Source: a bacterium
GTDB taxonomy: Bacteria; Patescibacteriota; Gracilibacteria; Peribacterales; Peribacteraceae
Length of the DNA stretch: 64,000 nucleotides
Reading direction: 5' to 3'
Assembly: GCA_029558515.1 (NCBI GenBank)
Contig: JAKQEM010000042.1
Location: 62,001-126,000, forward strand
This document shows, piece after piece, positions 20,584 through 42,904 of this stretch (the stretch's first letter is position 1; each line of letters starts with the position of its first letter). The position numbers were made by a program, and so were the translations under genes. The notes beneath the pieces were generated by a model, which ran no database searches, was not told the origin of the DNA, and saw only the letters and a program-made list of their open reading frames with translations.

Positions 20584-20585
20584 AA

Positions 20586-22190: not shown

Positions 22191-22322
22191 GGGCTGTTGG
22201 TGGTGGATTTTGGGTACTTCGCATCGCCCGAACACTACCGCCTACCTTGACATCTATCAAGGTGATAAGTGTCAGCTTCCGCCTTTGGAAGCCGAGAAGT
22301 AGCCTGAAAGATCACAACCACT

Positions 22323-23924: not shown

Positions 23925-23947
23925 AAAATTGTAAGGGGAAATAGGAA

Positions 23948-24187
23948 TTAAAGTTTTCGTATATGTGGATATTGCTCGGTGAGTGTCCGGTAATTTTTCA
24001 TAATAATGAGAACCTGTTCACGCGATAGGCAGGAGTGCTCGCAGACAATGTGAAGATCAAACATATTCGTGATTCCCGATCTTCTAACCTCCTCGTAGGC
24101 AGCAAACATTTCTTCGGTGATGGTTGAGACGTTCATATTCATGCTGATGGGAGAAATAATTGAGGCTATCGATGGATATCCACGCAC
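23948..24187 (-). CDS. Small hypothetical protein
   Basis: 79-aa ORF just upstream of the recombinase gene. Confidence 0.35.
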   Translation of the reverse strand: MRGYPSIASIISPISMNMNVSTITEEMFAAYEEVRRSGITNMFDLHIVCEHSCLSREQVLIIMKNYRTLTEQYPHIRKL

Positions 24188-24717
24188 ACCACGCGCATAT
24201 CGGGGTGAGCTTTAAGTGCTGCTTTGACTTCTCGAAGCCAGCTGTTGGCTTTCTTTCGTTCCGTTCTCCACTTCATCCATCCTTCGACGATGAATGTTTC
24301 CCATTCATGCCACCAGCCGTTGGGCGTCACCATCGCCGCAGGAAGTATCTCTTTCAGGTTCTTCTTCTCCAGAAGTGCAGCTGTAGCAATAACATGTCCC
24401 GGGAAGCGTTGACACCATCTCCCACCAATCTCATACCAATCCCACTTCGCCTTTGGATTGAATGTCTTAATGGAAAAGATTCCCTTCTGATCCACTCCGC
24501 CTGGGTTCCCTTTCCAATTTTCCATATGTGATACGAGCACCTTTCGATCGGTGCGACGCACCCCATAGTGTTTTGCCATTGCCGCGATTTCTCCTACATC
24601 CAGATATTCCTTGTATGGAGGCACCTCGTGCTCATCACTATAAAGCCGGAGGGCTCTTGCAACGTGTTCCTCGATGTCGCCGTCGCTTGGGATGAAGACG
24701 TAGACGCTGTAGTGCAT
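24166..24717 (-). CDS. Hypothetical protein
   Basis: Internal start MHYSVYVFIPSDGDIEEHVARALRL; same strand as terminase block. Confidence 0.45.
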   Translation of the reverse strand: MHYSVYVFIPSDGDIEEHVARALRLYSDEHEVPPYKEYLDVGEIAAMAKHYGVRRTDRKVLVSHMENWKGNPGGVDQKGIFSIKTFNPKAKWDWYEIGGRWCQRFPGHVIATAALLEKKNLKEILPAAMVTPNGWWHEWETFIVEGWMKWRTERKKANSWLREVKAALKAHPDMRVVCVDIHR

Positions 24718-24818
24718 AGAATTGCTGGAAATGGCTTCTCTACACAGCAATGGCGCTACTCGCACCCAAAGGCTAGGCGAAAGACCCGCCTGCCTTCTCC
24801 TAAACTCCCTCAAATTGC

Positions 24819-26357: not shown

Positions 26358-26373
26358 GGGCACAGGGGGAATA

Positions 26374-27954
26374 TTAAAATTGCATGTCGAGAATGTTTCC
26401 AAAGCTGCCGCTACCGCGGTCGTCGCTGTGATCCGGATACATGAACTTCTTCCAGCCCGAACTCATGTCCATATCCGCTTTGGAGAGACCTTTATTGAGT
26501 TCGCCAAGACTCAGGGGCCTGCCCCGTCCCCGCATCTCAAGTAGCGGTAGTATGAGAATGGCAAATGCATCCGCGAGATCGTCGTAGCGCTCATTGCCGA
26601 AGCCCACGAGCTGCTCGATCAGTCGCTCACATCCAGTCATCGGGAACCGCACACGTCCCGATTGAATAAGATGCGATGCCAAAGCGAGGCGCGAACGCTT
26701 GTCTTGCCCTTTCGTCGGCACGCCTGTGGCGGGAAATCGGGCAGCATCCAGCTGTTCGATCAATCCACGCTGGAAGCCAACATCTTCAATGAAGAGGTCT
26801 GTTTTCTCACCGCCGCCGAGCACGAGAGATACAGACTTCGCCCGTTCGATTGTCTCAAGAAAGCTCAAGTGCTCATTGACGGGGTTCGGAAGAATATAGA
26901 TCACCATATCCTCGCCGTAGCCGTACATCCGTCCCGAGACCATCGCGGTATTGTCTGCACCATCTTCCTTCGAGATCGCGGGATCGATGCCGGTTGCGAT
27001 AGTGCGGAATGGCAGCTTGTCTTCGTCATCGGGAAATTTGCCGTAGTACGTGATCCACGAGGGTTGGATAAGCCGCTCCAGATCCGGAATGATCCGAAGC
27101 ATGTACTCCCGCTGCCATGCTGCCTCGCTCCCCACGCGCTGCCGCTCTGTTTCAATGGTGCGTACTGTCGGATATTTTCCTGGCCAGAGGCAGTTACCTT
27201 CGTTATTCAGGATCGGATACTCCCGAAACACGCCCTGCATCGTCCCGCTCGCAATCTCACGCTGTAGCCGCCGGAGCAGACAATCTTCATGCAGAAGGTT
27301 GCCCACGAATACGATGCGCGTGCTTCTGTCACCTGCAGGAATCAGTTCTCCCTTTACCCACGCATATGTCTTGTCCCTACCCTCGCGGGTCTTCACGGAC
27401 TGCAGATCCTCAATATCATCACAAATGATCAAGTCCGGACGGAATTCCTTATGACGTAGTCCTCGAACGGATTGATCGATGCTGACTGCCATGATCTTCG
27501 CGTTGTAGCTCCCGATGACAAGGCAGCTATTGCGCCATTCATCCTCTTCCTCGTGGTACGGCCACAGGTCGTCGTGCAGGAGCTTATTATTCTCCAGTTC
27601 CTCTTTGATGTTTTTCAGGTGCTGCCGCGCCTGAGCCTGTGTCTGGCCGACAAGCAGGATGAATTTCTTCCCCGGCTTTCCCAAGATCGACCAAAGCACG
27701 AACGACATGTTCATGATGGTCGATTTGGCAGATCCACGAAATGCCGTGATGACGATGGTCTGCAGTCCGTCATTCTCAGTTAACCGGAACATGTCTTTCT
27801 GGAATGCTGCCGTCCGGTACTTCACGTAGTGGGAGAAATAGCAGTGGAAGAAAATCTCATGATGTTCCTGCGTGAGCTTGCGCCGAGCTTTCCGGTCACG
27901 CAGCATCAGTGCCACCAGTTGTTCCATCCGTGGAGGGAGGTTGTGGTTGGTCAT
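26374..27954 (-). CDS. Terminase large subunit-like ATPase/nuclease (copy 1)
   Basis: AFRGSAKSTIMNMSF, LIICDDIEDLQS, GIDPAISKEDGADNTAMV, DDLADAFAILI; paralogous to the adjacent ORF. Confidence 0.85.
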   Translation of the reverse strand: MTNHNLPPRMEQLVALMLRDRKARRKLTQEHHEIFFHCYFSHYVKYRTAAFQKDMFRLTENDGLQTIVITAFRGSAKSTIMNMSFVLWSILGKPGKKFILLVGQTQAQARQHLKNIKEELENNKLLHDDLWPYHEEEDEWRNSCLVIGSYNAKIMAVSIDQSVRGLRHKEFRPDLIICDDIEDLQSVKTREGRDKTYAWVKGELIPAGDRSTRIVFVGNLLHEDCLLRRLQREIASGTMQGVFREYPILNNEGNCLWPGKYPTVRTIETERQRVGSEAAWQREYMLRIIPDLERLIQPSWITYYGKFPDDEDKLPFRTIATGIDPAISKEDGADNTAMVSGRMYGYGEDMVIYILPNPVNEHLSFLETIERAKSVSLVLGGGEKTDLFIEDVGFQRGLIEQLDAARFPATGVPTKGQDKRSRLALASHLIQSGRVRFPMTGCERLIEQLVGFGNERYDDLADAFAILILPLLEMRGRGRPLSLGELNKGLSKADMDMSSGWKKFMYPDHSDDRGSGSFGNILDMQF

Positions 27955-28402
27955 GGGAGGAAGTGGAAGATGAAAGAGCGACATCCTCGTCTCCAAGGGA
28001 TGCCATCTTGAGAGCTTCGGTAATTGCAGCTTCCTGTTCGGGCGTCAGTGCATCGTTGTCCTGTTTGATACGCGCAGTCACCTCGAGCTTGTTGTTGTAA
28101 TTGGGGTTACGGTGCTTGAGCCAGTACATGACCGCGCCCAAATTATTGTCGCGGATCGCGGCGAGGAGTTGGCTCTCGGCCATGTCATTGACCAGATGCG
28201 TGCCTTCGGCCAGCGCTTCGTCTGCTGCCTTGGAAAATTCTGCATCCTCCTTTTTCCAGCGGTAGTAGGTCGCCCTCCCTACGCCGGATTTTTCGCAGGC
28301 GATGGAGACGATCGGCACTTTTTTCAGTTGCTCAAGCAGCAAAGCCTGCTCGCGGGCTTTGCGTGCTTCGATAACACCTGATGGCTCTTTCTTATTTGTC
28401 AT
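27896..28402 (-). CDS. Terminase small subunit-like / HTH protein
   Basis: HTH-like IACEKSGVGRATYYRWKKEDAEFSKAADEAL directly upstream of TerL. Confidence 0.65.
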   Translation of the reverse strand: MTNKKEPSGVIEARKAREQALLLEQLKKVPIVSIACEKSGVGRATYYRWKKEDAEFSKAADEALAEGTHLVNDMAESQLLAAIRDNNLGAVMYWLKHRNPNYNNKLEVTARIKQDNDALTPEQEAAITEALKMASLGDEDVALSSSTSSHDQPQPPSTDGTTGGTDAA

Positions 28403-29171
28403 GATGCTTTGGGGAAGGAAGTTTCTGTGCGTCGGTGCCCGTCAGTTTTTCAAAACGGCGAATGATCACCTCGCAGTACTTCGGATCGAGCTCCACGGCG
28501 ATGCACTTGCGCTTCGTCTGCTCGCAGGCGATCAATGTGCTGCCGCTCCCGGCGAATGGTTCGTAGACCGTGTCACCGATCCGTGAGCTATTGAGGATTA
28601 ACTGACGCAGGAGGCCTACAGGCTTCATTGTCGGATGAAGAACGCTTTTTGTGGGCTTCGGATAGACAATGACGCTCTTATCCTTGGATCGACGGAACTC
28701 ATGGACGCCAAGCCATCCATAAGCGATCAGTTCATGCTGAGGGAGATAGTCGAGACGCCCAACGATGGCTTGGGTCTTCACCCACACGAGCAGCTGTGCT
28801 AGATGGCACCCGGCGTCCTGCATGCCGTCCCGCAGCGGGAACACCATCTTGTCGGAATTGAAGATGTAGAGAGCGTTTTTGCGCTGCAGGAAAGGCTTTA
28901 CGGTTTCGATCCATCGGCGGGTAAAGATACGGTACTCGCCGTCGCTCTGCAGATGGTCATTCTTGATCGCCGTATGTGCCGTCTTCGCTTTGCGGAATTC
29001 TTCCTTCCCCTCAACATACGCAATGCCATAGGGAGGGTCGGTCAGGATGAGGGACACTTTCTTCTTGCCGATAACGTTACTCACAAGAGTCGTATCCATG
29101 CAGTCGCCGCAGGCGAGGATATGTTCTCTGAGCACGAATCGGTCGCCGGGTTTAATCGTGAACTTTGTCAT
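28392..29171 (-). CDS. DNA methyltransferase (N6-A/N4-C type)
   Basis: LILTDPPYGIAY and EPFAGSGSTLIACEQTKRKCIAVELDPKY. Confidence 0.88.
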   Translation of the reverse strand: MTKFTIKPGDRFVLREHILACGDCMDTTLVSNVIGKKKVSLILTDPPYGIAYVEGKEEFRKAKTAHTAIKNDHLQSDGEYRIFTRRWIETVKPFLQRKNALYIFNSDKMVFPLRDGMQDAGCHLAQLLVWVKTQAIVGRLDYLPQHELIAYGWLGVHEFRRSKDKSVIVYPKPTKSVLHPTMKPVGLLRQLILNSSRIGDTVYEPFAGSGSTLIACEQTKRKCIAVELDPKYCEVIIRRFEKLTGTDAQKLPSPKHHDK

Positions 29172-30469
29172 GATTTAAGGAGGGAAGCCTTCGTGCCTGT
29201 GAGAGCCTCGAAGCGGCGGATAATGAGGTCGCAAAACACCGGCTCCACTTCCATGAGAAATGCCCGGCGCTTAAGCTGTTCGCAGGCAATGAGGGTGGAA
29301 CCGGAACCGCCGAACAAGTCGAGGACTGTGTCCCCGGGCTTCGTGCAACGGCGCAGAGGTTTTTCGTGAAGGGTTGGCGGTTTTTCTGTTGGATGCTCGT
29401 ACAGGGAATTATGGATGCGCCTCGCCATCCATATGTCGAGCACATCTAAAATATCATCCACGGCGCGGTTACCACTTCCGATCTCCTTATTCAAAATCTC
29501 CGTCATGCTCCGCAGATTTTTATTGAGGTAGGGCTTGCCGCGGATTCCGTAGACACACGGCTCGTAGCATTTGGAGAAAGCGACCTCCAGCGTCACGTTC
29601 ATGTTGTTTTTGATCCACAGACAGGTTCGCTGTGGCTTGAGTCCTATCTCCGCGTAGAGCGTGTGCAGGAGGCCGATGTAACTGTGGTCGCAGTAGCAAA
29701 AGAAATGACAATCCTGTTTTGCGATATCGAGCGCATTTTTGTAGGTACGCAGCAGGAATTCCCGGTATTCCTCATCGGATTTATTGTCCTTCGTCTTGCC
29801 GCCGTAGCGCATGGAGTGACCGACACCCTCGTTATAGTTGAGATTGATGTTGTAGGGCGGGTCGAGATACACCATGTCCGGCTTCACCTTCCCAACGAGC
29901 TTGCGGACATCATCTGGATTTGTGGCATCGCCGCAAAGGAGCCGATGATTTCCGAGCGCAATCATCTGTCCCGGCTTCGTCTTGGGTTTCTTGATGGCTT
30001 CCAGCTCCTTTTCAATATCGAACCCGTCATCCTCCGCTTCCAGCATCCCGTCCCAGATGCTCGAGAGTTCGCTGTCCCCGAACCCCACATCCATGAGCAC
30101 ATCGATCTCAAACGCCTTTAGCTTCTCCCAATCCCATTCTCCCGTCGTGCGGTTGAGTCGGAGATTCAATTCTTTCTCTTCCTTCAGCTTCGGAAGATTG
30201 ATATACACGGTCGGTACCGATTTCATTCCAAGTCTCTTTGCCGCTTCTAGCCGCATGTGGCCGCCAATGACAATGTTCTTTCGTTTTGGTGCGCCATTCA
30301 CGATCACTGGATCGACGAATCCGAACTTCCGGATGCTGTCGGTGAGCCGCTCGAGCGCGGATTCATCCCATTTACGGGGATTGTAGGTCGCAGGGACAAG
30401 ATCATCGATCGGTACCGCCGCGATCCGTAGATCGGGTGGAAGCGTTGTGGTAGCATGTTTGGATGCCAT
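29168..30469 (-). CDS. ParB-like nuclease domain + DNA methyltransferase fusion
   Basis: ParB-like N-term (VPIDDLVPATYNPRKWDESALERLTDSIRKFGFVDPVIVN), DPPYNINLN, DLFGGSGSTLIACEQ. Confidence 0.9.
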   Translation of the reverse strand: MASKHATTTLPPDLRIAAVPIDDLVPATYNPRKWDESALERLTDSIRKFGFVDPVIVNGAPKRKNIVIGGHMRLEAAKRLGMKSVPTVYINLPKLKEEKELNLRLNRTTGEWDWEKLKAFEIDVLMDVGFGDSELSSIWDGMLEAEDDGFDIEKELEAIKKPKTKPGQMIALGNHRLLCGDATNPDDVRKLVGKVKPDMVYLDPPYNINLNYNEGVGHSMRYGGKTKDNKSDEEYREFLLRTYKNALDIAKQDCHFFCYCDHSYIGLLHTLYAEIGLKPQRTCLWIKNNMNVTLEVAFSKCYEPCVYGIRGKPYLNKNLRSMTEILNKEIGSGNRAVDDILDVLDIWMARRIHNSLYEHPTEKPPTLHEKPLRRCTKPGDTVLDLFGGSGSTLIACEQLKRRAFLMEVEPVFCDLIIRRFEALTGTKASLLKS

Positions 30470-30529
30470 AAAGGAAAAGGTGCGGGGAGATAAACACCTT
30501 CCGTTATAGCCATTTCAGACCGGTTTTTT

Positions 30530-31678
30530 TCATGCTTGCCGCATACGTGCCGCTTCTTCGACTTTTGCTCTCCGTTCCAACCTTTTTTGCTTGTTTGTAT
30601 GCTCTTTTATGCAACGAGGTTCCGCACATGTCCACTGTTCCTTTTTGTTCGGACGAGGGACGAAGGGCGTATGGCAAATCTCGCAGTACCGCTGCAACTC
30701 ATTGAGAACATCTTTCACTGAATGTTTCTTAGCTGTAAGTGCATAAAGAAAATCATTGAGGATCATGATCATACGGTTTGTCTCTTCTGCACTAACCAGT
30801 GTTTTCTCCTGTACTTCGATACGGTATTCCTTGATGGATTTTCGAGTGCTCAGAACACTCTGCTTTGCAAGAAATGTCAGCCAAGATCCAATTTCTTCAG
30901 TACTGAACTTATACCGCTTTAGGATGTCTTTTGCTTCTTTCTTCATTGCGGGTAGCTGCTCGCTTGTGAAATCAAGCTGCCATTCTTCTTGAGCATATTT
31001 TTCTCCTACTTCTTTCTGTACTTGGTCGAAGCGTTCGTAACCATACTGAACCCATCGATCGTGCATTTCTTCAGCGGCAAGGTAGAAACCGAGAAAATGA
31101 TAGAGGGGAGCAACTTTATCATTGATGAACGTTTTCACACGACTGCCAGCCAGAGGAGTAAAATCGCTGTAGTAACGTATAGCATCTCGGATGATCCGTA
31201 GAGCGATAATCTGCCGCTTTTCATAAAGCAATTCATATACATTTCCGGCCTTCTCCATATCTGTAATAAAATATGAATGTTGGCGCTTCTGCCATTTAAA
31301 ATACTGTTGTGCAGCTGGAAAGCTCACAAGATTGTGCGGCTCGTACCACTTCATCCAATCATCGCCACCCATCGATAAGGCATTCGTCATGTAGTACGGC
31401 GTATCTTCTACTTTCTCTGGCTTGAACTTATCGATATGTTCCGGGGCTACGAAGCGCCACTCACGTTCACCATTGAAGACGGCATAGATTTTGCGAAACT
31501 CACCGCAGCCAAGATCGACTCTTACTGCTGGATAAAGCAGGCCGATCTGGTGGAACTCTTCCAGATTTTCAATCGTCACATTGATCCCATTCTCTCCACA
31601 ATATTTACAAAAATCATCCTTCGTCAAAAGTGTGCTCTGCCGGAACGGTGATTGAGTTTTGATTGTCGGAATTTCCAT
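30530..31678 (-). CDS. Hypothetical protein with C-terminal zinc-finger-like region
   Basis: CEICHTPF...WTCAEPRCIKEH; TATACT 8 nt upstream of ATG. Confidence 0.6.
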   Translation of the reverse strand: MEIPTIKTQSPFRQSTLLTKDDFCKYCGENGINVTIENLEEFHQIGLLYPAVRVDLGCGEFRKIYAVFNGEREWRFVAPEHIDKFKPEKVEDTPYYMTNALSMGGDDWMKWYEPHNLVSFPAAQQYFKWQKRQHSYFITDMEKAGNVYELLYEKRQIIALRIIRDAIRYYSDFTPLAGSRVKTFINDKVAPLYHFLGFYLAAEEMHDRWVQYGYERFDQVQKEVGEKYAQEEWQLDFTSEQLPAMKKEAKDILKRYKFSTEEIGSWLTFLAKQSVLSTRKSIKEYRIEVQEKTLVSAEETNRMIMILNDFLYALTAKKHSVKDVLNELQRYCEICHTPFVPRPNKKEQWTCAEPRCIKEHTNKQKRLERRAKVEEAARMRQA

Positions 31679-31798: not shown

Positions 31799-34705
31799 AT
31801 GCCCATGCCTACTCCACGATCAGGTCCCGGCGATGAACTAGGAGAACAAGATTCTCCAGAGAATCCTCTTTCTAATGCTCCTGAGCGACAAGGGGAAGAA
31901 AGATCCGAACTTATAGACGCTACTCGCGGAACACTTTCTGCTCGCGCAAAGGAAGCAATCGAATTGCCACCGAATCGCACTGTTCTCGATATTCCTATTG
32001 AGTTTGGCAGTGAAGGAAAGAAAATTGAAACGCAAAATAGAAAAGGTACATATGTCGTTCAAATAAATGCCATGCGCTTTCGCAGCCGCGAAGATGCAGA
32101 ACGTGCCGGCATTCTTCAGGCGGCGTACCTTCGTTCTCTCCGCGACCACTTGCAGTCCGAAACAGGTAAGGCATTTGAAGCATTGCAATCATTCGGTACT
32201 GCTGCTCACAACGCTCTACGCTTCAAGGGGCTCAAGATGATGTCGGAGTGGGAAAAGGGAGAGACTTCTCCTGTGACAGCTGCCACTGAAATACCTCTCA
32301 CCCTTGCACAAATCTTTGACCGTAGCATTGAGCACTACGTTCTTACGGGAAGGTTGCCCGAAGCGATTCCGAATGAAGTTCGACAGGCGCTGGAAAAGAT
32401 TCCAGGCCGACAAGGAAAAAGCGCTCTCGATTTCATTGCAGAGAACAGTCGATCACTCCGAAGCAGCGCGAAGCTCTACGAAGAACACATCGCTCCACTC
32501 CGCGAGCGTCTCAAGGAAGAGGATGGCGAGAAGCGGATGACCGAGCGCGACGATTACGTACCGCCTGACGGGAAAGGAGAGCAGGCACCGCTTGATCCGG
32601 AAAGCGTGCGATGGAGAGTAGAGCCATTCGTGGGCGGCTACTACCGTCAGCAATTATTCCGATACGACCCAAGCGCACAAAGAATCGTCGCTGAGCCGAC
32701 AGATAAAACGGAGTTCCGTCTCACGGATGTTCCGGAAAATATCGATGAATTGCAGCGCTACACGTTCCGCGGAGTATTTGTTCCCGGCGAAGAGAACCGC
32801 ATCCCATTCCCCGAAAAGGGACTGCCTCTTCCTGACACTCTTGATCCAAAAGGAACACTCCGGCTCTACAGAAGTTCGGCAGGCATTTTTTCTCTGGAGG
32901 AAAAGCAGGAAGGCACCGTCACTGAACCCATGCAGTATTCTTTTGAGTTCGTTCTTGCCCGTAATAGCGATAACCGTATCAATGACGAACCAACCGAAGC
33001 AGATATGAGAACCATCGAGGGTCCGCTTGATACAACTGCGGAAGATTTACTTTCGGGTTTGAAGCGAAATACTTTCCTCGGCAAAGCAGATCGCGGACGT
33101 GCAATCGTGTTTGCCACACGCAAGCAATTTATGTATCCGAAGGATGAGGAGATGTCTGCAATGGATGAACGATACAGGGTTGCAGGAGCAAGCCTTCATC
33201 CTGAAATGGCCGATCTCAAGCTCGCGGACTGCCATTGGAGCAACATTCGGGCGTCTGATTTGGGGCGCAGATTGGATGTTCCCATGCGCACTCCAAGCGG
33301 CTTTTTCGTCACACGTCATCCCGATGTAGATTTCGCTCCCATTGGAGGCATCGGGCATGCTTGGAGTGAACGATGGGATGAGACATCGCAGCAATGGATT
33401 CGCACTGATGCCACGCCGCCGAAGCAAAATGAGGATGAAGATGAAGAGAATGAGGAAGATCAACCAGCAGCCGCCCCTGCCGCCGCAGGAGAAAGAGAGA
33501 CGAAGGTCGGTGAAAATGACGCAGAGAACGAAGTGGAGGAAACCGGAGTCCTTGAAATGAATGAAGACGAGATCGCAAAGCTGCTGGAACTTGTGACGCA
33601 ATCTGCTCCTTCAGCTCAGGAGGTTGCGGAAGAATTATTCAGGCAGCGCACGAATGTATCGGCGGCTGACTGGAAAAAAGTGGAAGGATTTGTGGAGACG
33701 GTAAATGCCGCTCAAGTCGCACCCGAGGCACAGATTCCTGAAACACCGGAGTTACTGCGCCACTTCCGCGAACGTATTACGGCTCCGAAGGGAACACTAG
33801 AACGAGAGTGGCAGAAGCTTTTCTGCCTTATCTGCACACATCGTGAGGTGCGCCGTCGCAAGTTTCCCGGCAATGTTCGCCAAAGCGAGAGCACAACGGG
33901 ACTCGATAATCCCGTAGATGCCTACATTGATATTATGGCTGACGAAAGCGATCCGATGGGATTTGGCATTGATACACGGAGACCGGAGACCATCCTTGAT
34001 GTGAAAGCGTTCGAGGAGGATGCGCTCGTCGATCTCACATCCTCCATGAACGATACGGATAACTATGGAAACGTGATGCGTGTGGAGCAAAAGAAAATGA
34101 TTCTCTCGCTTCTGTATCATCTCATGGAACTGAACGAGGAACTGAATGATTCCCGTGTGCGCTCCACGCTCCGCACGCCGCTCAAAATTCGTTCCGAGAT
34201 CTATTCCATTCATGGCCAAGGCAAAAAGAACCAAGGACAATTTGCCCGTCTCAAAGCTGCGGATGAAGATATTACGGAAGCAGCGCTCGTCCATCTTGCG
34301 CGCGAACTCGATCAGACCACGCCCGGTGCAGGGGATTTCTTGAGTGCACTTCAGGCTTACAGAAAAGGAATATCTCCCGAAACTCTGCAAAGAATTCGCT
34401 CGGGAGATATGGTCAAACTGCTTACAATCTATTCCGATGGCAACCACTGGTGCTCCAACTGCGGCTCGGAATCCTGCAATGTCCAGATCCATGCAGATCG
34501 CGTTCGCGCAGCGCAGGAGGAAATCGCCAAAATCCGAGAGCTTGGTATCATTGTGCAGGGCATCGGATTCACGAAAAAAGCTGAAGCGATCAGGCTTATG
34601 TGCCATGATCCCAATGAGCCGGGCGGTGCCGTTGTGGTTAATGATGTCTCTCGTGCCGTTTCAGCCAGACATACGATGCTGACCAAGCATTTGCGTAATC
34701 TATAA
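31799..34705 (+). CDS. Transglutaminase-like + vWA-like multidomain protein, DGR-linked
   Basis: TGc-like C/H/D pattern (ADCHWSNIRASDLGRRLDVPMRTPSGFF ... GIGHAWSERWDETSQQWIRTDATPP); vWA-like VDLTSSMND (DxSxS-like) and ...IYSDGNHW...GIIVQGIGFTKKAEAI; extended -10 TGGTATAAT upstream. Confidence 0.72.
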   Translation: MPMPTPRSGPGDELGEQDSPENPLSNAPERQGEERSELIDATRGTLSARAKEAIELPPNRTVLDIPIEFGSEGKKIETQNRKGTYVVQINAMRFRSREDAERAGILQAAYLRSLRDHLQSETGKAFEALQSFGTAAHNALRFKGLKMMSEWEKGETSPVTAATEIPLTLAQIFDRSIEHYVLTGRLPEAIPNEVRQALEKIPGRQGKSALDFIAENSRSLRSSAKLYEEHIAPLRERLKEEDGEKRMTERDDYVPPDGKGEQAPLDPESVRWRVEPFVGGYYRQQLFRYDPSAQRIVAEPTDKTEFRLTDVPENIDELQRYTFRGVFVPGEENRIPFPEKGLPLPDTLDPKGTLRLYRSSAGIFSLEEKQEGTVTEPMQYSFEFVLARNSDNRINDEPTEADMRTIEGPLDTTAEDLLSGLKRNTFLGKADRGRAIVFATRKQFMYPKDEEMSAMDERYRVAGASLHPEMADLKLADCHWSNIRASDLGRRLDVPMRTPSGFFVTRHPDVDFAPIGGIGHAWSERWDETSQQWIRTDATPPKQNEDEDEENEEDQPAAAPAAAGERETKVGENDAENEVEETGVLEMNEDEIAKLLELVTQSAPSAQEVAEELFRQRTNVSAADWKKVEGFVETVNAAQVAPEAQIPETPELLRHFRERITAPKGTLEREWQKLFCLICTHREVRRRKFPGNVRQSESTTGLDNPVDAYIDIMADESDPMGFGIDTRRPETILDVKAFEEDALVDLTSSMNDTDNYGNVMRVEQKKMILSLLYHLMELNEELNDSRVRSTLRTPLKIRSEIYSIHGQGKKNQGQFARLKAADEDITEAALVHLARELDQTTPGAGDFLSALQAYRKGISPETLQRIRSGDMVKLLTIYSDGNHWCSNCGSESCNVQIHADRVRAAQEEIAKIRELGIIVQGIGFTKKAEAIRLMCHDPNEPGGAVVVNDVSRAVSARHTMLTKHLRNL

Positions 34706-34735
34706 ATTAGTGTATAATATTAAGAAAGCTTACCT

Positions 34736-37549
34736 ATGCCTATAAAGAAGATCACTGGCGCACCTCAAGATCCCCCTGAAAGGGAGGATTCTGCCATAGA
34801 AAGTGGGAAAGACGGCACATCAAAGAAAATCAGTATTGTACGAGAGGCCATGCGCCTTGGATTGGATTTGTCTGCCTTGCGCCTCGACCAGTTCGTCCCC
34901 AAAGATGGCGAGCATGCCGGAACAAATGGGGCACCTCTGGGCACAGAGGAGATCAGACGAAAAGCTCTGGAAACGCTTCACCTGCTCGATGAATACAACC
35001 GCGTGAAGCTCGCGCCAAGTAAAGCTTCCCTTGGAAAGAAGGATGATCTATTTGAGGGCATTGAGAGTCTTGATGATTTTATTTCTGCTCTCGATACGGG
35101 CAAAGAGAAAGGGGGTGAGAAGAAAGCTGAGCCGACAGAGAAATTTAGGAGAGAGGAGCTGGCGGATCGCATCAGTGAACTGCTCTCCGAGCCGCAGGTG
35201 TATCAGCTTTTACGCCAGTCGCTAACGAAGGAAACGGAACGCTTTGTTTCCGTTCAGCCGCTTCTTTCACGATTACATAAGTTACGCCAAGTGCAGGACA
35301 TCGCCTTTGAGCGCATCCACACTCTCTCGCTTGAGAGTAAACGCCAGCATGGCAAGATCGTGGGGTCAGTACAGACGACCATTGAAAAGCTCTCGCGCCT
35401 TAGCAAGGAAGCGGAGGAAGAGGAAAGCCGTTTGGAAGAGGAAGCCAGTCCTTTGGAAAAAGGATGGATTGCCTCACAGCGTCTCCTCGAATATAAGCAG
35501 CAACTCAAGAAAGATCGTTTCGTCATGACTCCGAGTCGTCGTGCGATCCTCGATGAGATGATTGCGAAGCTCGGCAGCAAGGGTCGCGTGCTTCTGCTCG
35601 GCTCCAATGGAACAGGAAAGACCGAGCTTGGAGCAAAAGCTCTCAAACTCGTCTCGAATGGATATCACCTTGTTCCGTGGCAGGAAGCTACAACTGGACA
35701 GGATATCTTCGGACGCCAAGAGATTCGCCGTCAGAATGGCCATGTGGAAAGCGGCCTTCGTCCGGGTCCTATGACTCGTGCCATCGAAGCAAAAGAAGGA
35801 GAACCAGCCGGTGTGCTGCACGATGAATTGAACCTTGGAAGTCTCCGCACGATTTATCTCTTAAAGAAACTCTGGAACAGCCGCCCGGGGCAGGAAGTGG
35901 ACGTTCCGGTGCTCGATGAGAAGCGTGTCTTGCCTCTCAATTATGCTGAGGTATATACGGCAAACCCGAAGGATGAGCGCACAAGCAACCGCGAGGAGTT
36001 CGATGCGGGTATCACACGCGTCCTTGGCGGTATGAATGTTCCGTTCCTTGCTCAGAACGAACAGGAGCAGATCATCCTCGCAAAGCTTATTGATGAGAAC
36101 GGCGTATTACATCTCTCAAAGAGTGAAGCACAGACCATCCGCGAACTTGTGGCGGCAGCCGTCATGACGCAACAGTGTTTTGATCGCGCGTTTGCCGATC
36201 TGGGCGATGAGGCTCTTGCAGAGATAAAGAGCATGACGGGTATTTCGGATCTGAGACTCACAAAGAAATTCCTTGATCCAGGTCGGCTCATGGAAATGTT
36301 CGATACCTACGAACAGAAGCGAGCAGAAGGCATGAGTGTTGCGGATTATCTTTCTGCAGAATTGAAGAAGTTCCTCGCGGAATTTGAAGTGGAGGAAGAG
36401 CGAAACATTGCAATTGCCATTCTTAAATTGAAAGGTGTTATTGCTGCGGATAGCACAGCACAAGAGCCGTATGTTCAGGTTCTGAAGAAGCCGGGCGAGA
36501 AGCCATATCTGCTTCCTTCTGAACTTGCATTCGTCGTCTCTTGCGATGATGAATTGGATGATTCGGACATCGAATTTGATCAGCCAGAGGTCAGTTTGGA
36601 GGATGTCATCGCTACGGATGGCGCTGAACTCTTGGAATTGCTCAACCAAGGATCACCGGGTGCAATCCGAGCGAAGACCCGCAAGGGTATTGCCGAAGCG
36701 CTTGGCACATCTCAGAAAGCAATTGATCGTGCTCGGCAGATCATGCTTGAAAAGTGCGGCGAGGGTCACTTCTATGGCCCAAGTGAATTGGAGAAAACTT
36801 TCCCCGGCATGAAAATCGATTTGAAGGACGTTCCTGCTCTGCCTGCCGAGAGTGAGATCCAGCGCCACGCTGCTCTTGGTCAAACGCTTCGTCTTCGCAT
36901 CAGCAAAGCTCCGGATGGGTCGAAGTTAACGATGCAGAAAATGCACCAGCTTCTCCAAGATGAATTCAGCAAGAGCAAAGACGGCAAAGTGCTCTACAGC
37001 GCCGAAGATGAATGGAAATTGAAATCGACATTCTTTACGGACGAAGTGCCGGAGCTTGCGTGGGGATTCACTTCCGATGAAGTGCTGCCGAATTCTACTG
37101 GAAAGAACCACCTGCAGCAGACGCAATTCATGGCTGAATATGCTAAAAACACTCTCTTCAAGGGAGAGCAAATGCCACAGGAATACCGCGAAGCGATGGC
37201 GGAATTGGCTGCTCAGCAGAATGAAATTCAGCAGCTGATGAACAGCGATTGGAAAGCTGCCGCAGACCGATTGGCGAATCTGAAAATCAATAAGCTCATG
37301 CGAGCTACCCCTGTCGAAACTCTCTGCGATCTCCTCGTCACGTTCCGAAATAGCGATCCAAAGAAGCGCAAGCGTCTGCTTGAGAAAAAATTAACGTGGA
37401 CTGCTACTCATAGCTCGGGCGGCGGCCTCGTCTACGTCGGTTACTTCGCTCCGGGCGGCGTGTACGTCAGCCGCTGGGACCCGCGCGGCTCGAGTGACGT
37501 TCTCGGGGTCGTCCTCGCTCGGAAGTTCCCCCGAACCTTGCGCACTTGA
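34736..37549 (+). CDS. MoxR/AAA_5-type ATPase with DGR variable C-terminus (target 1)
   Basis: Walker A GSNGTGKTE, Walker B-like GVLHDELNLG; C-terminus SSGGGLVYVGYFAPGGVYVSRWDPRGSSDVLGVVLARKF is VR1. Confidence 0.87.
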   Translation: MPIKKITGAPQDPPEREDSAIESGKDGTSKKISIVREAMRLGLDLSALRLDQFVPKDGEHAGTNGAPLGTEEIRRKALETLHLLDEYNRVKLAPSKASLGKKDDLFEGIESLDDFISALDTGKEKGGEKKAEPTEKFRREELADRISELLSEPQVYQLLRQSLTKETERFVSVQPLLSRLHKLRQVQDIAFERIHTLSLESKRQHGKIVGSVQTTIEKLSRLSKEAEEEESRLEEEASPLEKGWIASQRLLEYKQQLKKDRFVMTPSRRAILDEMIAKLGSKGRVLLLGSNGTGKTELGAKALKLVSNGYHLVPWQEATTGQDIFGRQEIRRQNGHVESGLRPGPMTRAIEAKEGEPAGVLHDELNLGSLRTIYLLKKLWNSRPGQEVDVPVLDEKRVLPLNYAEVYTANPKDERTSNREEFDAGITRVLGGMNVPFLAQNEQEQIILAKLIDENGVLHLSKSEAQTIRELVAAAVMTQQCFDRAFADLGDEALAEIKSMTGISDLRLTKKFLDPGRLMEMFDTYEQKRAEGMSVADYLSAELKKFLAEFEVEEERNIAIAILKLKGVIAADSTAQEPYVQVLKKPGEKPYLLPSELAFVVSCDDELDDSDIEFDQPEVSLEDVIATDGAELLELLNQGSPGAIRAKTRKGIAEALGTSQKAIDRARQIMLEKCGEGHFYGPSELEKTFPGMKIDLKDVPALPAESEIQRHAALGQTLRLRISKAPDGSKLTMQKMHQLLQDEFSKSKDGKVLYSAEDEWKLKSTFFTDEVPELAWGFTSDEVLPNSTGKNHLQQTQFMAEYAKNTLFKGEQMPQEYREAMAELAAQQNEIQQLMNSDWKAAADRLANLKINKLMRATPVETLCDLLVTFRNSDPKKRKRLLEKKLTWTATHSSGGGLVYVGYFAPGGVYVSRWDPRGSSDVLGVVLARKFPRTLRT
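37411..37529 (+). repeat. DGR variable repeat VR1
   Basis: Aligns gap-free to TR over 119 nt; by eye 18 of 28 TR adenines differ and the only other difference is a terminal C->G (coordinates +/-1). Confidence 0.95.
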
Positions 37550-37630
37550 ATACTTGAACTTCCTCGAATCCTTTTTCCTTGAAGCATCCGCTACTGACGA
37601 ATTTTCACCTTCTGCTGTCTCTCACTCTCA

Positions 37631-38653
37631 ATGCCACGCGAAGCACTCCATATGTTCATCCGGCAACTCAAGGAAAGTACCGCCTACAAAGATCATGTGG
37701 ACGTCCGCACTGTTGTCGATGAGACAGTTCAGAGAATCGCCGCATTGTCGGAGGAAGATGGCGGTCCGCAGCTTCGGGAGGAAATCCGTAGCCTCCATGA
37801 GCGCATTGTCCCTTTCTTGCATGGAACGGGTGCCCCGAAAGGAAAAGAGAAAAAGGGAAATGCGATTAATCCTAAAGAAGCAGAAACTATCATGGGCAGA
37901 GACCGTTTCTTTGGAGCAGAAGCCGTTCGTAAGGCTTTCCCGGGCATCCTGCTTAAGCCGGAACAGATTCCAGCTATACCGTTCTCCAAAGAAGACTTAC
38001 TGCGAGCCAAGGAACTCGGTGATAGCCTCCGTTTGCGTGTGAGCAAAGCTCCGGGCAATGGCAATTTGAATATGGAAAAAATGCAGGAACTGCTGCAGCC
38101 GACCTTCGATCAGAAGAATGAAGGGAAGATTCTGTACGATACCGATTGGTACGAAGGCGAGGATTTCTTCAAGGAAGCACCTGAATTGTGCTGGGTGCTT
38201 ACATCGGATGGAATTATTCCGGATTCAGAGGACAAGGACTATCTACAGCAGACGGAGCATATTGCTTTGTACCTGCGCGAGACGGTCTATAAAGGCAAGA
38301 AACTCCCGCAGCAGTACGCTGATGCAATCAAGGAGATGGAAGCTCAGAAAGATGAAATCCGTCGCCTTATCGATAATGACGATTGGCAGGAAGCAGCTGA
38401 GAAACTTGCGAACCTCAAACTCAACAAACTCACTCGCCGCATCCCTGTTGAAGTGCTCTACGATATGCTTGTAACGTTCCAGAATGGCGATAAGCGTCAT
38501 TTGGAAGATTTCTATGATTGGACATGTGTCCGTAGCTCGGGCGGCTGCCTCGTCGGCGTCGGCGACTTCGATCGTGGCGGCGTGAGCGTCGGCCGCGATC
38601 AGCCTGGCAACTCGGATGGCAACCTCGGGGTCGTCCTCGCTCGGAAGTTCTGA
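37631..38653 (+). CDS. DGR target 2: ATPase-less paralog of the target 1 C-terminal region
   Basis: Shares LRLRxSKAPxxxxLxMxKMxxLLQ...LANLKxNKL...PVExLxDxLVTFxN with target 1 and ends in VR2. Confidence 0.87.
   Translation: MPREALHMFIRQLKESTAYKDHVDVRTVVDETVQRIAALSEEDGGPQLREEIRSLHERIVPFLHGTGAPKGKEKKGNAINPKEAETIMGRDRFFGAEAVRKAFPGILLKPEQIPAIPFSKEDLLRAKELGDSLRLRVSKAPGNGNLNMEKMQELLQPTFDQKNEGKILYDTDWYEGEDFFKEAPELCWVLTSDGIIPDSEDKDYLQQTEHIALYLRETVYKGKKLPQQYADAIKEMEAQKDEIRRLIDNDDWQEAAEKLANLKLNKLTRRIPVEVLYDMLVTFQNGDKRHLEDFYDWTCVRSSGGCLVGVGDFDRGGVSVGRDQPGNSDGNLGVVLARKF
38533..38651 (+). repeat. DGR variable repeat VR2
   Basis: Aligns gap-free to TR over ~119 nt; differs at ~17 TR adenines plus ~10 non-adenine positions plus the terminal C->G. 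Confidence 0.92.
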
Positions 38654-39068
38654 GCCTTGTGACCTTGAAACCTTGATTCTCCTCGAATCCTTTACTCTTG
38701 AAGCATCCGCTACAGGCGATTTTGAGGTATTTTGCTCTGGATACTGACTTCATTTGCATCATAGGATGCATTTGCGGCCCGTTCTTGCAGTCAGGGTTAC
38801 GGCTCTGGCTCACGGTACGCTTCATCTCTGCTACCACTGAAGCGGTCAGCGTAGGTGGAAACTCACCAGAATACCGTGTCTCTACGGAGCACAGTAGCGA
38901 GTGGGCTTAGATGCGAAGGAACTTCTTGCTCATTCTCAGACTCGGTATCGTCTCCCAAGATGATTGCGGGCGAATCAAATTCAGGGGAAAGAGGATATAG
39001 CTCAGTGTTTTTTTGTTTTGCTGAGGGTAAACCTCGATCTCCGGTGTCTCGGACGGGAATGGGCAACA

Positions 39069-39187
39069 TAGCTCGGACGGCAACCTCGTCAACGTCGGTA
39101 ACTTCGATCCGGACGGCGTGAACGTCAACAACTGGAACCCGAACAACTCGAATGACGATCTCGGGGTCGTCCTCGCTCGGAACTTCC
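39069..39187 (+). repeat. DGR template repeat TR
   Basis: A-rich-codon counterpart of VR1/VR2 (SSDGNLVNVGNFDPDGVNVNNWNPNNSNDDLGVVLARNF if translated), upstream of RT, noncoding. Confidence 0.95.
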
Positions 39188-39230
39188 TTCTCGGTAATTC
39201 AAGGGGCTCATATATTCTGGGCCCCTTGGG

Positions 39231-39581
39231 TTATCCCTCGCGTGTTGACTTGATCCATCCTCCGAGCATCCGTCCGATCTCATCAACCATCTCTTCGATG
39301 ATCGCATATTTCTTGAGATCGATCGCCTTCACATCTTTGGCAAGGCGAAGGAAGACGCGCAGAACATTGAGCTTAAGGCTTACGCGTTCAAGCGGCTCCA
39401 GTTTCTGTGTTTTGCGTAGCTGGCTTGCAAGGAGGATTCCCTCCAGAACTTCCAGCACCAGATTCTCACACCGAGGCCAGAGCGCAGTGCGATCTTGTTT
39501 CGATACTGATGCCCGAAACTCATAGAGCTTCTTCGTCAGTTCGTATGCCTTCTTGAAAATCGGAATATCTAATTCTTCCAT
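39231..39581 (-). CDS. avd: DGR accessory variability determinant (Avd-like four-helix bundle), antisense to TR-RT
   Basis: MEELDIPIFKKAYELTKKLYEFR...LLEGI..SQL...LNVLRVFLRLAKD...IIEEMVDEIGRMLGGWIKS matches Avd-type signature EIGxxLGGWIK. Confidence 0.88.
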   Translation of the reverse strand: MEELDIPIFKKAYELTKKLYEFRASVSKQDRTALWPRCENLVLEVLEGILLASQLRKTQKLEPLERVSLKLNVLRVFLRLAKDVKAIDLKKYAIIEEMVDEIGRMLGGWIKSTREG

Positions 39582-39594
39582 AACGACATAAAGC

Positions 39595-40644
39595 ATGAAA
39601 GTACACAAGAATATCTTCGACCGGATTATTACGCCAGAGAACTTGTTCCATGCTTGGGAAGAATTCCGCAGAGGCAAGGGCTCGCGGAAAGATGTGCAGG
39701 CGTTCGAGTGGCAGCTTGAACAGAACATCTTGGCTCTTTGTCGGGATCTCCGCAGTCGGACATACAGACACGGAGAGTATTCGGCTTTTTCGATCTGTGA
39801 TCCGAAGCAACGCCGGATTCACAAGGCAAAAGTACGTGATCGCATCTTGCACCACGCAATTTTCAAGGTGCTCAATCCCATCTTCGAGCCGACGTTCATT
39901 GCACATTCCTATTCCTGTCGTGAGAGGAAAGGAACGCATAGAGCAGTCGATGCGTTGGAAACATGGCTGCGAAAAGTCAGCAAAAACTGTAGGGCACCCT
40001 GTTTTGCTCTCAAGTGTGACATCCACCAGTTCTTTGCCTCAGTCGATCATGCAATCCTGCTTTCTATTCTTAATCGAAGGATTAAAGATCCCGATGCAAT
40101 GTGGCTACTGAAGGAAATTATAGAGAGCTTCAGAACTCCTGGGCAGGAAGATGAACGTCCCAAGGGTATCCCCATCGGAAACCTCACCTCGCAGTTGTTT
40201 GCAAACGTATACTTGAACGAGTTCGATCAATTCATGAAGCATCAAATGCATGTCCGTCATTACGTCCGCTACACGGATGATTTTGTCATCGTCGATTCTG
40301 ATAAATCTGTATTGGAAAATCTGATTCCAGCTATGCAGGAGTTCTTGGGTGGAACTATGAATCTCAAATTGCATCCTCGCAAAATCATTCTCCGCAAATT
40401 CAGTCAGGGCATCGATTTTCTCGGCTATGTCATTTTGCCGCATTATAGAGTGCTACGAACGCGCACGAAGAAGCGAATGTTCCGCAAGCTCAAGCTCCGG
40501 GTGGTGAGTTTCAAGGCGGGAACAGGCAGCGAATCATCTGTCGAATGTTCACTCCAGTCATATCTCGGCGTTCTGTCGCATGCGAATACCGAGCAGCTCA
40601 GCGAAAAACTGAAAAACCAATGCTGGTTCTGGATGTGCGAATAA
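39595..40644 (+). CDS. DGR reverse transcriptase
   Basis: RT motifs FALKCDIHQFFASVDH, IPIGNLTSQLFANVYLNEFD (DGR-type GxxxSQ), VRYTDDFVIV. Confidence 0.97.
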   Translation: MKVHKNIFDRIITPENLFHAWEEFRRGKGSRKDVQAFEWQLEQNILALCRDLRSRTYRHGEYSAFSICDPKQRRIHKAKVRDRILHHAIFKVLNPIFEPTFIAHSYSCRERKGTHRAVDALETWLRKVSKNCRAPCFALKCDIHQFFASVDHAILLSILNRRIKDPDAMWLLKEIIESFRTPGQEDERPKGIPIGNLTSQLFANVYLNEFDQFMKHQMHVRHYVRYTDDFVIVDSDKSVLENLIPAMQEFLGGTMNLKLHPRKIILRKFSQGIDFLGYVILPHYRVLRTRTKKRMFRKLKLRVVSFKAGTGSESSVECSLQSYLGVLSHANTEQLSEKLKNQCWFWMCE

Positions 40645-40791: not shown

Positions 40792-41007
40792 ATGACAGTC
40801 ACTCCAAAGTACGCACAGAGAGCTAATCCAGATCGTCTACTTCACATCCTCTGCAGGGATTGTGGCAAAAATGTTATAGGTGAGCTGGATCAGGATTACC
40901 CGGGCAAAGAGGAACTCAAAAAAGCTGAAATGTTTAAGTATGGAGCCAAGTGTTTGCGTTGCGGATATGTCGCTCGTGACAATTACAATTGGTACCGACA
41001 TCGATAG
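40792..41007 (+). CDS. Small zinc-ribbon protein
   Basis: ILCRDCGKNVI ... AKCLRCGYVA, two CxxC knuckles. Confidence 0.5.
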   Translation: MTVTPKYAQRANPDRLLHILCRDCGKNVIGELDQDYPGKEELKKAEMFKYGAKCLRCGYVARDNYNWYRHR

Positions 41008-41060
41008 ATAGATGTAGGAAGAGAACTTTACTCGATTACACCTATTCGTATAATTATGAG

Positions 41061-41738
41061 ATGCGACCTTCTCAGGTAGGCCCACAAAAGCAGAAGACAC
41101 GCAGTACGGAATTCAACTGGGATCATGTCATGGACATGGTCGAGAACATGCAACGCATCCATGAGTTGCTGTTGCCTTTCCAGCAAGAAGAAGATCGCAG
41201 GCAGCGGAAACTCAAGGAATTTCCCGAAGGTTTTCACCTCAACGGCAAAGGCTACTCCTGCGCCATCTGCGGCGGTTCATGCTCGAATGAGGAAACATGG
41301 TACGACCAATACGGAATCAAGTGCATGGACTGTAAAGCGGCGGTTGATCGCGGGGATATTCCCGCGTATTGCGCGGAAGACAAAGAGAAATGGTACTCGC
41401 GATGGGATCTGCAGAGTGCCTTCAATGTGAAGGGTCCGACGATAACCCGATGGCTAAAGGCGGGCATTATCAAAGCCCGTCGCGTAAAGCGCGAAGGACA
41501 TGAGGATGCACTCGTGTTTCTGATCGAGGACAACAAAGATTTTCTGCCGCCGAAGAAGCTCGTCAAGAATTATTCCCACACCGAACGGACGAATGACGAT
41601 GGAACATTCATGGTCCATATTGAGCCGTGGTATCGGCACGTCGATCCGCATGCTCACCTCAAGGGCTACAAAATCATGGATGAACTCCAATTCGTGAACG
41701 GAGAGTTAGGAATCAAGAAGTCTCAGAAAGAGAAATAA
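41061..41738 (+). CDS. Zinc-ribbon + HTH-like protein
   Basis: SCAICGG...IKCMDCKAA; HTH-like WDLQSAFNVKGPTITRWLKAGIIKARRV. Confidence 0.6.
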   Translation: MRPSQVGPQKQKTRSTEFNWDHVMDMVENMQRIHELLLPFQQEEDRRQRKLKEFPEGFHLNGKGYSCAICGGSCSNEETWYDQYGIKCMDCKAAVDRGDIPAYCAEDKEKWYSRWDLQSAFNVKGPTITRWLKAGIIKARRVKREGHEDALVFLIEDNKDFLPPKKLVKNYSHTERTNDDGTFMVHIEPWYRHVDPHAHLKGYKIMDELQFVNGELGIKKSQKEK

Positions 41739-41752
41739 TTCTTTCCAAAACT

Positions 41753-42904
41753 ATGAGCTACCAATACCTCAAAGACCGGTCCCACTACGAAGAGATGTAT
41801 GACAGGTTCACGGTCGAGTGGTGCCGCCGCTTTGAAGAGCCCCGCCCCGTTTCCGATGAGGAACTAGAGGCATCGAAGGAACTCTCCCTCTCGCAGATCC
41901 AGTGGTGCCACGATCTTTCGACAGATTTCCTGCTCTTTCAGGAGGCCGGAAATCGATGGCTACGGAGGGAGGAGACGATCCGGGAATGGATCGAACGGGA
42001 CGAACGGCGGGATCAGATGATAGAACGAGCACAGGTGCCACTCGTTCGCTGTCCATCTTGCGGAAAAGAGATGGAATGCATCTATACCGACGTACGTTCC
42101 GATATCGACAGCGACAGGGAGTGGTTGGAGTTTTTTCTCTGCTGCAAGCCCTGCAAGCAGGGAAAAGATGTCTACGAGAACGGAAGCGAAGTTCCCCGGA
42201 AGCCCGTTCTTTGCGAAAAGTGTAGTCGCGAGGTCGAAACTGACATCAAAAAGAAAGACGGCAAACGCTATTACATCGAAACCTGCAAACACTGTGGGCA
42301 TGTCGAGGAGACGCTGAGCACGATTGACGAAAAGAAGAAAGAACCGACCCAAGAGGAGATTGCTCGCTTCGAGTATGATAAGAAGCGTTTCTGCCTCACC
42401 AATCAGCAAGGGCAGCGCTATCGGGTGTGGCAGGAGCAGATGAAGCGCTTGGATGACGAGGAGAAGGTCCAAGAAGCCAATGCCGAGTTCTACGACAAGC
42501 TCGCTGAGGTGAAGAAAATCAACATCGCAGGCTTGGAAAAATTGCTCAAGCCAGCCTTGAAGAAGGTAGGCTACGCCGATCTACGCTTCACCATGTCGCC
42601 TCCAGCCCAGCAAATTATTTTGAACTTTTCTGTGCGTGATACGGAAGAAAAACGAGAGGACTACGACAGCCGGAAGATGCTTGAGAAAACTATCGAAAAA
42701 ATTTTGGAAGACAAGAATTGGGCGCTTACATCCGAGGGCGTGAGCTATCGACTTGGCATGCTCGATGGACGTATCCGAGGATACGAGTCGGAGGAAGATC
42801 TGCAGCAGCTCACAAAATCGCGCATGAAGAAAAAGGGCAAGCATGTGAAACTGAAGAAGTCGAGAGACTATGCCTCCATGTTTCCAGAGGATGTCGTGCT
42901 ATAA
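41753..42904 (+). CDS. Protein with two zinc-ribbon segments
   Basis: CPSCGKEME...CCKPC; CEKCSREVE...CKHCGHVEE. Confidence 0.62.
   Translation: MSYQYLKDRSHYEEMYDRFTVEWCRRFEEPRPVSDEELEASKELSLSQIQWCHDLSTDFLLFQEAGNRWLRREETIREWIERDERRDQMIERAQVPLVRCPSCGKEMECIYTDVRSDIDSDREWLEFFLCCKPCKQGKDVYENGSEVPRKPVLCEKCSREVETDIKKKDGKRYYIETCKHCGHVEETLSTIDEKKKEPTQEEIARFEYDKKRFCLTNQQGQRYRVWQEQMKRLDDEEKVQEANAEFYDKLAEVKKINIAGLEKLLKPALKKVGYADLRFTMSPPAQQIILNFSVRDTEEKREDYDSRKMLEKTIEKILEDKNWALTSEGVSYRLGMLDGRIRGYESEEDLQQLTKSRMKKKGKHVKLKKSRDYASMFPEDVVL

What the first reader, a model, noticed from the sequence alone, without database searches (positions are those of the whole stretch)
31799..40644. DGR that diversifies an AAA+ (MoxR-type) ATPase next to a transglutaminase-vWA partner: candidate undescribed NTP-dependent recognition system
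Seen: five linked elements, 968-aa TGc+vWA-like protein, MoxR/AAA_5 ATPase with a VR as its C-terminus, ATPase-less VR paralog, TR, and RT with antisense avd. Established: DGRs (Bordetella phage BPP-1 paradigm) hypermutate ligand-binding termini; MoxR ATPases commonly pair with vWA proteins, some with transglutaminase-like proteins. Inference: a programmable binding domain on a MoxR motor may recruit its vWA/TGc partner to variable targets, for example in defence or surface interaction.
Basis: partly seen in the sequence, partly recalled or inferred. Interest (0 to 1): 0.93.

Follow-up and report, generated by a model that had tools for sequence, protein, structure and literature searches.

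The report
Self-diversifying ATPase with transglutaminase-vWA partner
A small-genome bacterium of the Patescibacteria carries a gene cassette that keeps rewriting the tip of an ATP-driven motor protein, paired with a transglutaminase-type enzyme and often parked among anti-virus genes, which suggests an internal, self-diversifying recognition system although its function is untested.

Summary
The cassette is a complete diversity-generating retroelement (DGR): RT, antisense avd, TR, and two VRs. One VR is the C-terminus of an AAA_5 (MoxR-clade) ATPase; the other ends an ATPase-less paralogue. Upstream lies a transglutaminase-core/vWA protein with an intact catalytic triad and MIDAS. The host is Peribacteria-like (Patescibacteria). 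The same genome holds a second full copy. VR/TR mismatches suggest the two copies templated each other in trans. TGc-vWA next to an AAA gene is conserved across Patescibacteria (32 loci). A DGR is attached in 13. Ten AAA-fused VRs differ from their TRs at 188/294 adenines but only 8/898 other bases. TGc-vWA and RT trees conflict, so DGRs were recruited or swapped more than once. The proteins look cytosolic. Several copies ride a serine-recombinase/terminase element without detected capsid genes, beside type III restriction or CBASS genes. AAA-CLec DGR targets in CPR and DGR-diversified MoxR-vWA conflict systems are already published; the TGc-vWA partner, the recurring operon and the defence-island setting were not in what I could read. 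Best reading: a new variant of MoxR-vWA recognition/effector systems, probably intracellular defence. Defence is inferred, not shown.

The parts
31799..34705 (+). TGc-vWA protein, 968 aa (TGc core about residues 412-545, vWA about 735-930)
   Evidence: Foldseek TgpA and vWA hits; invariant C478/H520/D537 triad and MIDAS residues in 20 homologues; Pfam Transglut_core in relatives
34736..37549 (+). AAA_5 (MoxR-clade) ATPase, 937 aa, with variable CLec-like C-terminal domain
   Evidence: Pfam AAA_5 4e-9 at residues 285-436; Walker A GSNGTGKT, HDE Walker B and R428 conserved
37409..37529 (+). VR1, C-terminus of the AAA protein
   Evidence: 18 of 29 TR adenines substituted, 1 of 92 other positions
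37631..38653 (+). ATPase-less VR protein, 340 aa, paralogue of the AAA protein's C-terminal region
   Evidence: 47% identity to residues 665-937 of the AAA protein; AF2 pLDDT 84
38531..38651 (+). VR2
   Evidence: matches the C35 cassette's TR at 7 of 8 diagnostic non-A sites, local TR at 1
39067..39187 (+). TR; 3' end GAACTTC against GAAGTTC in all four VRs of the genome (IMH*/IMH-like)
39231..39581 (-). avd (start probably at 39581; ORF listed to 39728), antisense, between TR and RT
   Evidence: bAvd 7.7e-16; PHROG Avd 7.7e-21
39595..40644 (+). DGR reverse transcriptase, 349 aa, motifs IGNLTSQ and YTDD
   Evidence: RVT_1 1.1e-20; motifs in alignment A2
22539..31678 (-). mobility module: large serine recombinase (22539-23924), two TerL (24819-26402, 26374-27996), TerS (27896-28402), MTase (28392-29171), ParB-like/MTase (29168-30469), unknown 382-aa protein (30530-31678)
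   Evidence: same module beside the second copy and in G031, L077 and IMG/VR contigs
15181..22235 (-). defence genes: CD-NTase (15181-16629), type III restriction enzyme (18295-20583) and methyltransferase (20586-22235)
   Evidence: PADLOC hits
40989..42904 (+). two unknown proteins (249 and 383 aa) that travel with the element
   Evidence: 77-80% identical homologues in G031; also matched in L130 and L133

Best explanation
A mobile, cytosolic AAA+/TGc-vWA recognition-and-response system whose sensor is diversified by a DGR. Shown: the adenine-restricted TR/VR signature with RT and Avd at the C-terminal CLec-like domain of the AAA protein and of a solo paralogue; the AAA gene is linked to a TGc-vWA gene across Patescibacteria. 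Inferred: the AAA protein forms a MoxR-type ring; ligand binding by the variable domains changes the ring's state; the vWA domain couples this to the transglutaminase/protease-like domain, which cleaves or crosslinks targets. The most likely purpose is intracellular recognition of invaders such as phages or mobile elements.
For: Ten AAA-fused VRs in ten cassettes differ from their TRs at 188/294 A but 8/898 non-A positions; nine solo VRs 166/274 against 10/820. TGc-vWA lies beside an AAA gene in 32 loci of many Patescibacteria lineages, with or without a DGR. The catalytic triad and MIDAS are invariant or nearly so. Separate DGR recruitments: {L064, L068, L156} group by TGc-vWA (100/99), but L064's RT falls in the other RT clade (100/100), and L057/L059/L068 carry a VR domain without visible similarity to the window's. 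A DGR-free relative instead has four adjacent LRR proteins. No signal peptide or TM segment by hydropathy. Neighbours: type III RM and CD-NTase, CBASS-type genes in G031, type III RM in L125.
Against: No activity, ligand or phenotype is known. AAA-vWA contact is inferred from gene linkage only. Defence neighbours were not tested against a genome-wide background. Some DGR copies lie between ordinary genes (L063, L068). VR fold similarity to CLec proteins is weak (best E 0.46). Only one DGR-bearing contig with this VR domain was found in the viral collection, and it lacks TGc.
Confidence: 0.55

Rival explanations
1. The DGR diversifies proteins for contact between the episymbiotic Patescibacterium and its host cell, the usual proposal for CPR DGRs.
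For: Proposed for CPR DGRs in the literature (PMC8867640, PMC10907252); many other DGRs occur in this class (92 of 353 genomes).
Against: No signal peptide or membrane segment in TGc-vWA, AAA-VR or VR2, and none clear in the relatives tested; an ATP-driven motor needs cytosolic ATP; defence-gene neighbours.
Confidence: 0.2
2. A housekeeping AAA-vWA chaperone/chelatase-like pair that remodels a protein complex, with the DGR as a later and dispensable add-on.
For: The TGc-vWA/AAA pair occurs without DGR in many genomes (L060, L061, L066, L067, L072, L074-L082).
Against: Very patchy: 15 of 380 genomes across the phylum and 32 of 353 in the class; separate DGR recruitments; carried on a mobile element in two copies.
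Confidence: 0.15
3. A prophage-borne DGR for phage receptor switching.
For: Terminase and serine recombinase next to the cassette.
Against: No HK97 capsid or portal match in the 99%-complete genome; targets are AAA ATPases, not tail fibres; several copies lie in ordinary chromosome context.
Confidence: 0.05

Closest known systems
DGR-associated VMAP MoxR-vWA ternary conflict systems (Kaur et al. 2020, PMC7159879; Dore et al. 2024, PMC10907252)
   Same: MoxR-type AAA+, vWA protein, DGR-diversified FGS/CLec domain, peptidase-type effector, often cytosolic targets
   Different: There the variable domain is mostly fused to the vWA protein; here it is on the AAA protein and on a solo paralogue. The candidate effector (TGc) is fused to the vWA. 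No VMAP domain was detected. Described in multicellular bacteria; Dore et al. [quoted passage not shown]
CPR DGR targets with AAA-CLec architecture (Paul et al. 2017; read only through PMC10907252 and PMC8867640)
   Same: AAA ATPase fused to variable CLec in CPR bacteria
   Different: In the text I could read there is no TGc-vWA partner, conserved operon or defence-island element; the original paper was not available.
MoxR / vWA-type / transglutaminase operons of bacteria (TgpA-type; from general knowledge)
   Same: The same three domain classes; TgpA is the top structural match
   Different: TgpA is a membrane/periplasmic protein; here TGc is fused to vWA, soluble, and linked to a DGR.

Membership tests
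Diversity-generating retroelement | RT with DGR-type [ILV]GxxxSQ and YxDD motifs | tested here: met
   IGNLTSQ and YTDD; RVT_1 1.1e-20
Diversity-generating retroelement | TR/VR pairs differing almost only at template adenines | tested here: met
   VR1 18/29 A against 1/92 non-A; 10 cassettes pooled 188/294 against 8/898
Diversity-generating retroelement | Accessory protein Avd | tested here: met
   bAvd 7.7e-16
Diversity-generating retroelement | IMH (VR) differing from IMH* (TR) at the 3' end | tested here: met
   All four VRs GAAGTTC, both TRs GAACTTC in the genome
Diversity-generating retroelement | VR in a C-type-lectin-fold domain | tested here: inconclusive
   Most of the best PDB matches are FGE-type, with TvpA and Mtd further down, but E 0.46 at best
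Diversity-generating retroelement | Ongoing VR variation in a population | not testable with these tools
   No reads available
MoxR-vWA ternary conflict system | MoxR-clade AAA+ ATPase gene adjacent to a vWA protein gene | tested here: met
   AAA_5; vWA fold; adjacency in 32 loci
MoxR-vWA ternary conflict system | VMAP (or iSTAND, FtsH, beta-propeller) third component | tested here: not met
   No such family in Pfam scans of the cassette and adjacent proteins; PADLOC gave no hit for the two large proteins
MoxR-vWA ternary conflict system | Variable FGS domain fused to the vWA protein (DGR-bearing VMAP systems) | tested here: not met
   VR is on the AAA protein and on a solo paralogue
Transglutaminase-like (TGc) enzyme | Cys-His-Asp triad in a TGc fold | tested here: met
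   C478, H520, D537 invariant in 20 homologues; TgpA fold match 1.2e-8
Prophage | Capsid and portal genes | tested here: not met
   No PF05065 or PF04860 match in the genome

The most novel reading that the evidence does not exclude
Patescibacteria possess a mobile, anticipatorily diversifying intracellular immune receptor: an AAA+ motor with a DGR-mutated sensor that fires a TGc-vWA effector, spread with type III RM and CBASS on serine-recombinase/terminase islands, and assembled repeatedly by swapping DGR and sensor modules onto one TGc-vWA/AAA chassis.
Probability: 0.35. Interest if true: 0.9.

Novelty: new variant of a known kind. Interest (0 to 1): 0.72.

Why it matters
CPR DGRs are numerous but their targets are unexplained, and Dore et al. 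[quoted passage not shown] A DGR-diversified AAA/TGc-vWA cassette that recurs across Patescibacteria, was assembled more than once, and sits beside restriction and CBASS genes gives a concrete testable hypothesis: diversified intracellular sensing in small-genome, probably epibiotic bacteria. It also shows apparent reciprocal template exchange between two DGR cassettes in one genome, visible without read data.

Tried and rejected
Paul et al. 2017: not held. PDB sequence search with the TGc-vWA profile: mostly calmodulin hits at E above 0.008 on part of the vWA stretch, treated as chance; one TgpA hit at E 0.008. PDB sequence search with the CLec profile: antibody heavy chains, judged chance. 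BFVD fold search of the VR protein: nothing. Empty integration site through the flanking PIF1 gene: flanks not syntenic in relatives, so element ends are undetermined. Viral contigs encoding TGc-vWA: none. Exact VR-type pattern in viral contigs: none. Prophage reading rejected for lack of capsid and portal. Local drift as the cause of VR2's non-A mismatches rejected in favour of trans-templating.

Full report
WHERE IT IS. The window lies on contig 43 (G000:C43:62001-126000) of a 1.31-Mb, 99%-complete genome. Its closest relative with the same cassette is a 'Candidatus Peribacteria' MAG, 78-79% identical in the TGc-vWA protein. Nearly all named records carrying the TGc-vWA family are Patescibacteria/CPR MAGs; a few records are unnamed 'bacterium' bins.

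THE CASSETTE. Five linked elements are present at the stated coordinates. VR1 (37409-37529) forms the C-terminus of the 937-aa AAA_5 ATPase and differs from the TR (39067-39187) at 18 of 29 template adenines and 1 of 92 other positions; that one is the C-to-G near the 3' end which all VRs share. In frame, most adenines of the TR lie in AAC/AAT, GAC and GAT codons, as in typical DGR templates. The RT has the IGNLTSQ and YTDD motifs. Avd lies antisense between TR and RT, probably starting at 39581 (read from the translation).

DOMAINS. Pfam does not recognise the 968-aa protein. With 20 homologues (alignment A5), C478, H520 and D537 and the D880-G881 pair are invariant, and D745, S749 and M750 nearly so. 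Foldseek of the AlphaFold model gives TgpA transglutaminase first, then vWA domains including the MIDAS domain of Rea1, a MoxR-clade AAA+ protein. Relatives hit Transglut_core above its cut-off: L064 1e-11, L017 6e-11, L077 2e-6. So TGc plus vWA is secure. The VR domain (AF2 pLDDT 84 in the 340-aa paralogue) has no sequence-based annotation. Its PDB fold matches are weak, but most of the best are formylglycine-generating enzymes and TvpA and Mtd also appear, which is what a diverged CLec fold would give.

A SECOND COPY AND RECIPROCAL TEMPLATING. Contig 35 of the same genome holds a full second cassette, about 80% identical at the protein level, with the same terminase/methylase and type III RM genes. 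The two TRs differ at 15 of 121 positions, 8 of which are non-A in both. The window's VR1 and both C35 VRs match the C43 TR at 8 of 8; the window's VR2 matches the C35 TR at 7 of 8. At one site the C43 TR has a T where the C35 and G031 TRs have C, and both C35 VRs have the T, so drift of the C35 TR alone is not the simplest account. The best explanation is template exchange in trans in both directions; gene conversion is not excluded. Trans action itself has precedent (PMC10907252). A genome-wide pattern search finds exactly these six copies and no further remote VR.

CONSERVATION. The TGc-vWA gene lies directly beside an AAA gene, or is separated from it only by a solo CLec gene, in 32 loci where the neighbour is on the contig. 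L069 is an exception: a CLec-like gene follows instead. A DGR is attached in 13 loci: window, C35, G031, L057, L059, L063, L064, L068, L077, L156, L159, L160, L161; in L156 RT and Avd are present but no VR was found in the AAA gene. In an even sample of the phylum 15 of 380 genomes carry the TGc-vWA protein, 9 of them with the DGR adjacent. Over ten AAA-fused VRs the substitution pattern is 188/294 at adenines against 8/898 elsewhere. In L160 the AAA protein has no fused VR domain and two solo VR proteins flank it instead. In L066/L017 the AAA gene is followed by four leucine-rich-repeat proteins and no DGR. In L018/L073 a CLec is fused but the genome (G044) has no DGR RT match. The recognition module is thus swapped on a common chassis. 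L113 and L125 show a sister arrangement in which a vWA protein without TGc pairs with an AAA-CLec and a DGR.

MODULE SWAPPING. TGc-vWA groups L064 with L068 and L156 (100/99), whereas RT puts L068 and L156 on one side of a 100/100 branch and L064 on the other. TGc-vWA and RT distances are uncorrelated once the close Peribacteria copies are removed (Mantel r 0.07, p 0.30). L057, L059 and L068 carry a VR domain without visible similarity to the window's. DGRs were therefore recruited or swapped on this chassis more than once.

MOBILITY AND NEIGHBOURS. A serine recombinase, TerL, TerS and ParB/methylase module flanks the cassette in the window, in C35, in G031 and in a distant Parcubacterium (L077). 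All or part of the module recurs on IMG/VR contigs L125-L134, whose other genes include type III RM, type I RM-like genes and a DGR. No HK97 capsid or portal match exists in the window's genome. Defence genes are neighbours: CD-NTase and type III RM here, and HNH-SAVED, a CD-NTase-like protein and a ThiF-family protein in G031, which read as type II CBASS. I have no background rate, so this is association only.

HOW IT PROBABLY WORKS. The cassette proteins have no signal peptide or membrane segment by hydropathy, and the relatives tested have none that is clear. I infer a cytosolic complex: a MoxR-type AAA ring displays variable CLec domains, the solo paralogue may act as a second sensor or decoy, ligand binding alters the ring, and the vWA partner passes this to the TGc enzyme. 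Defence against invaders is the likeliest purpose (about 0.5); the enzyme's substrate is unknown.

KNOWN VERSUS NEW. Kaur et al. 2020 (PMC7159879) described MoxR-vWA ternary systems with DGR-diversified FGS domains, mostly fused to vWA, and mention transglutaminase-like peptidases only as rare VMAP N-terminal domains. Dore et al. 2024 (PMC10907252) extended this, cite AAA-CLec as the commonest CPR architecture, and state that clade-5F CPR/DPANN DGRs lack conflict-domain association. Roux et al. 2021 (PMC8144416) found few recognisable domains in CPR targets. Which published RT clade the window's RT belongs to was not tested. The TGc-vWA partner, the recurring operon, the island context and the reciprocal templating are additions to these. 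Because a defining part (VMAP) was not found, I do not file it as a VMAP system; it works like one.

Noticed in passing
window 38531-38651; L003 10186-10306, 11308-11428, 11827-11947: Apparent reciprocal trans-templating between two DGR cassettes of one genome: VR2 carries the other cassette's TR signature (7/8 sites), and both C35 VRs carry the C43 signature (8/8).
   Followed up: yes
window 22539-30469; L126-L134: A recurring serine-recombinase/TerL/TerS/ParB-methylase module without detected capsid genes, found on IMG/VR 'viral' contigs and in distant Patescibacteria, often with restriction or other defence cargo; possibly a new class of mobile island or satellite.
   Followed up: partly
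L016 3934-8481: Type II CBASS-like operon (HNH-SAVED, CD-NTase-like, ThiF, probable JAB) directly beside the serine recombinase of the G031 cassette.
   Followed up: partly
L017 5802-9554 (= L066 14322-18074): Four tandem leucine-rich-repeat proteins next to a DGR-free TGc-vWA/AAA pair, a possible alternative recognition module.
   Followed up: partly
L113 8672-14351; L125 6454-13928: vWA protein without TGc (CobT_C-like) + about 137-aa protein + AAA-CLec + solo CLec + TR + RT: a related DGR system lacking the transglutaminase.
   Followed up: partly
L074-L082, L021: A second TGc-vWA subfamily (about 1040 aa) paired with a large (about 1220-1300 aa) upstream AAA protein, DGR-free, mostly in Parcubacteria.
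   Followed up: no
L059 15931-16919; L063 16311-16865: RT genes split or truncated although their VRs still show the adenine signature; possibly decaying or misassembled.
   Followed up: no
window 15181-16629: CD-NTase (oligonucleotide cyclase) gene on the left flank without an effector identified next to it.
   Followed up: no
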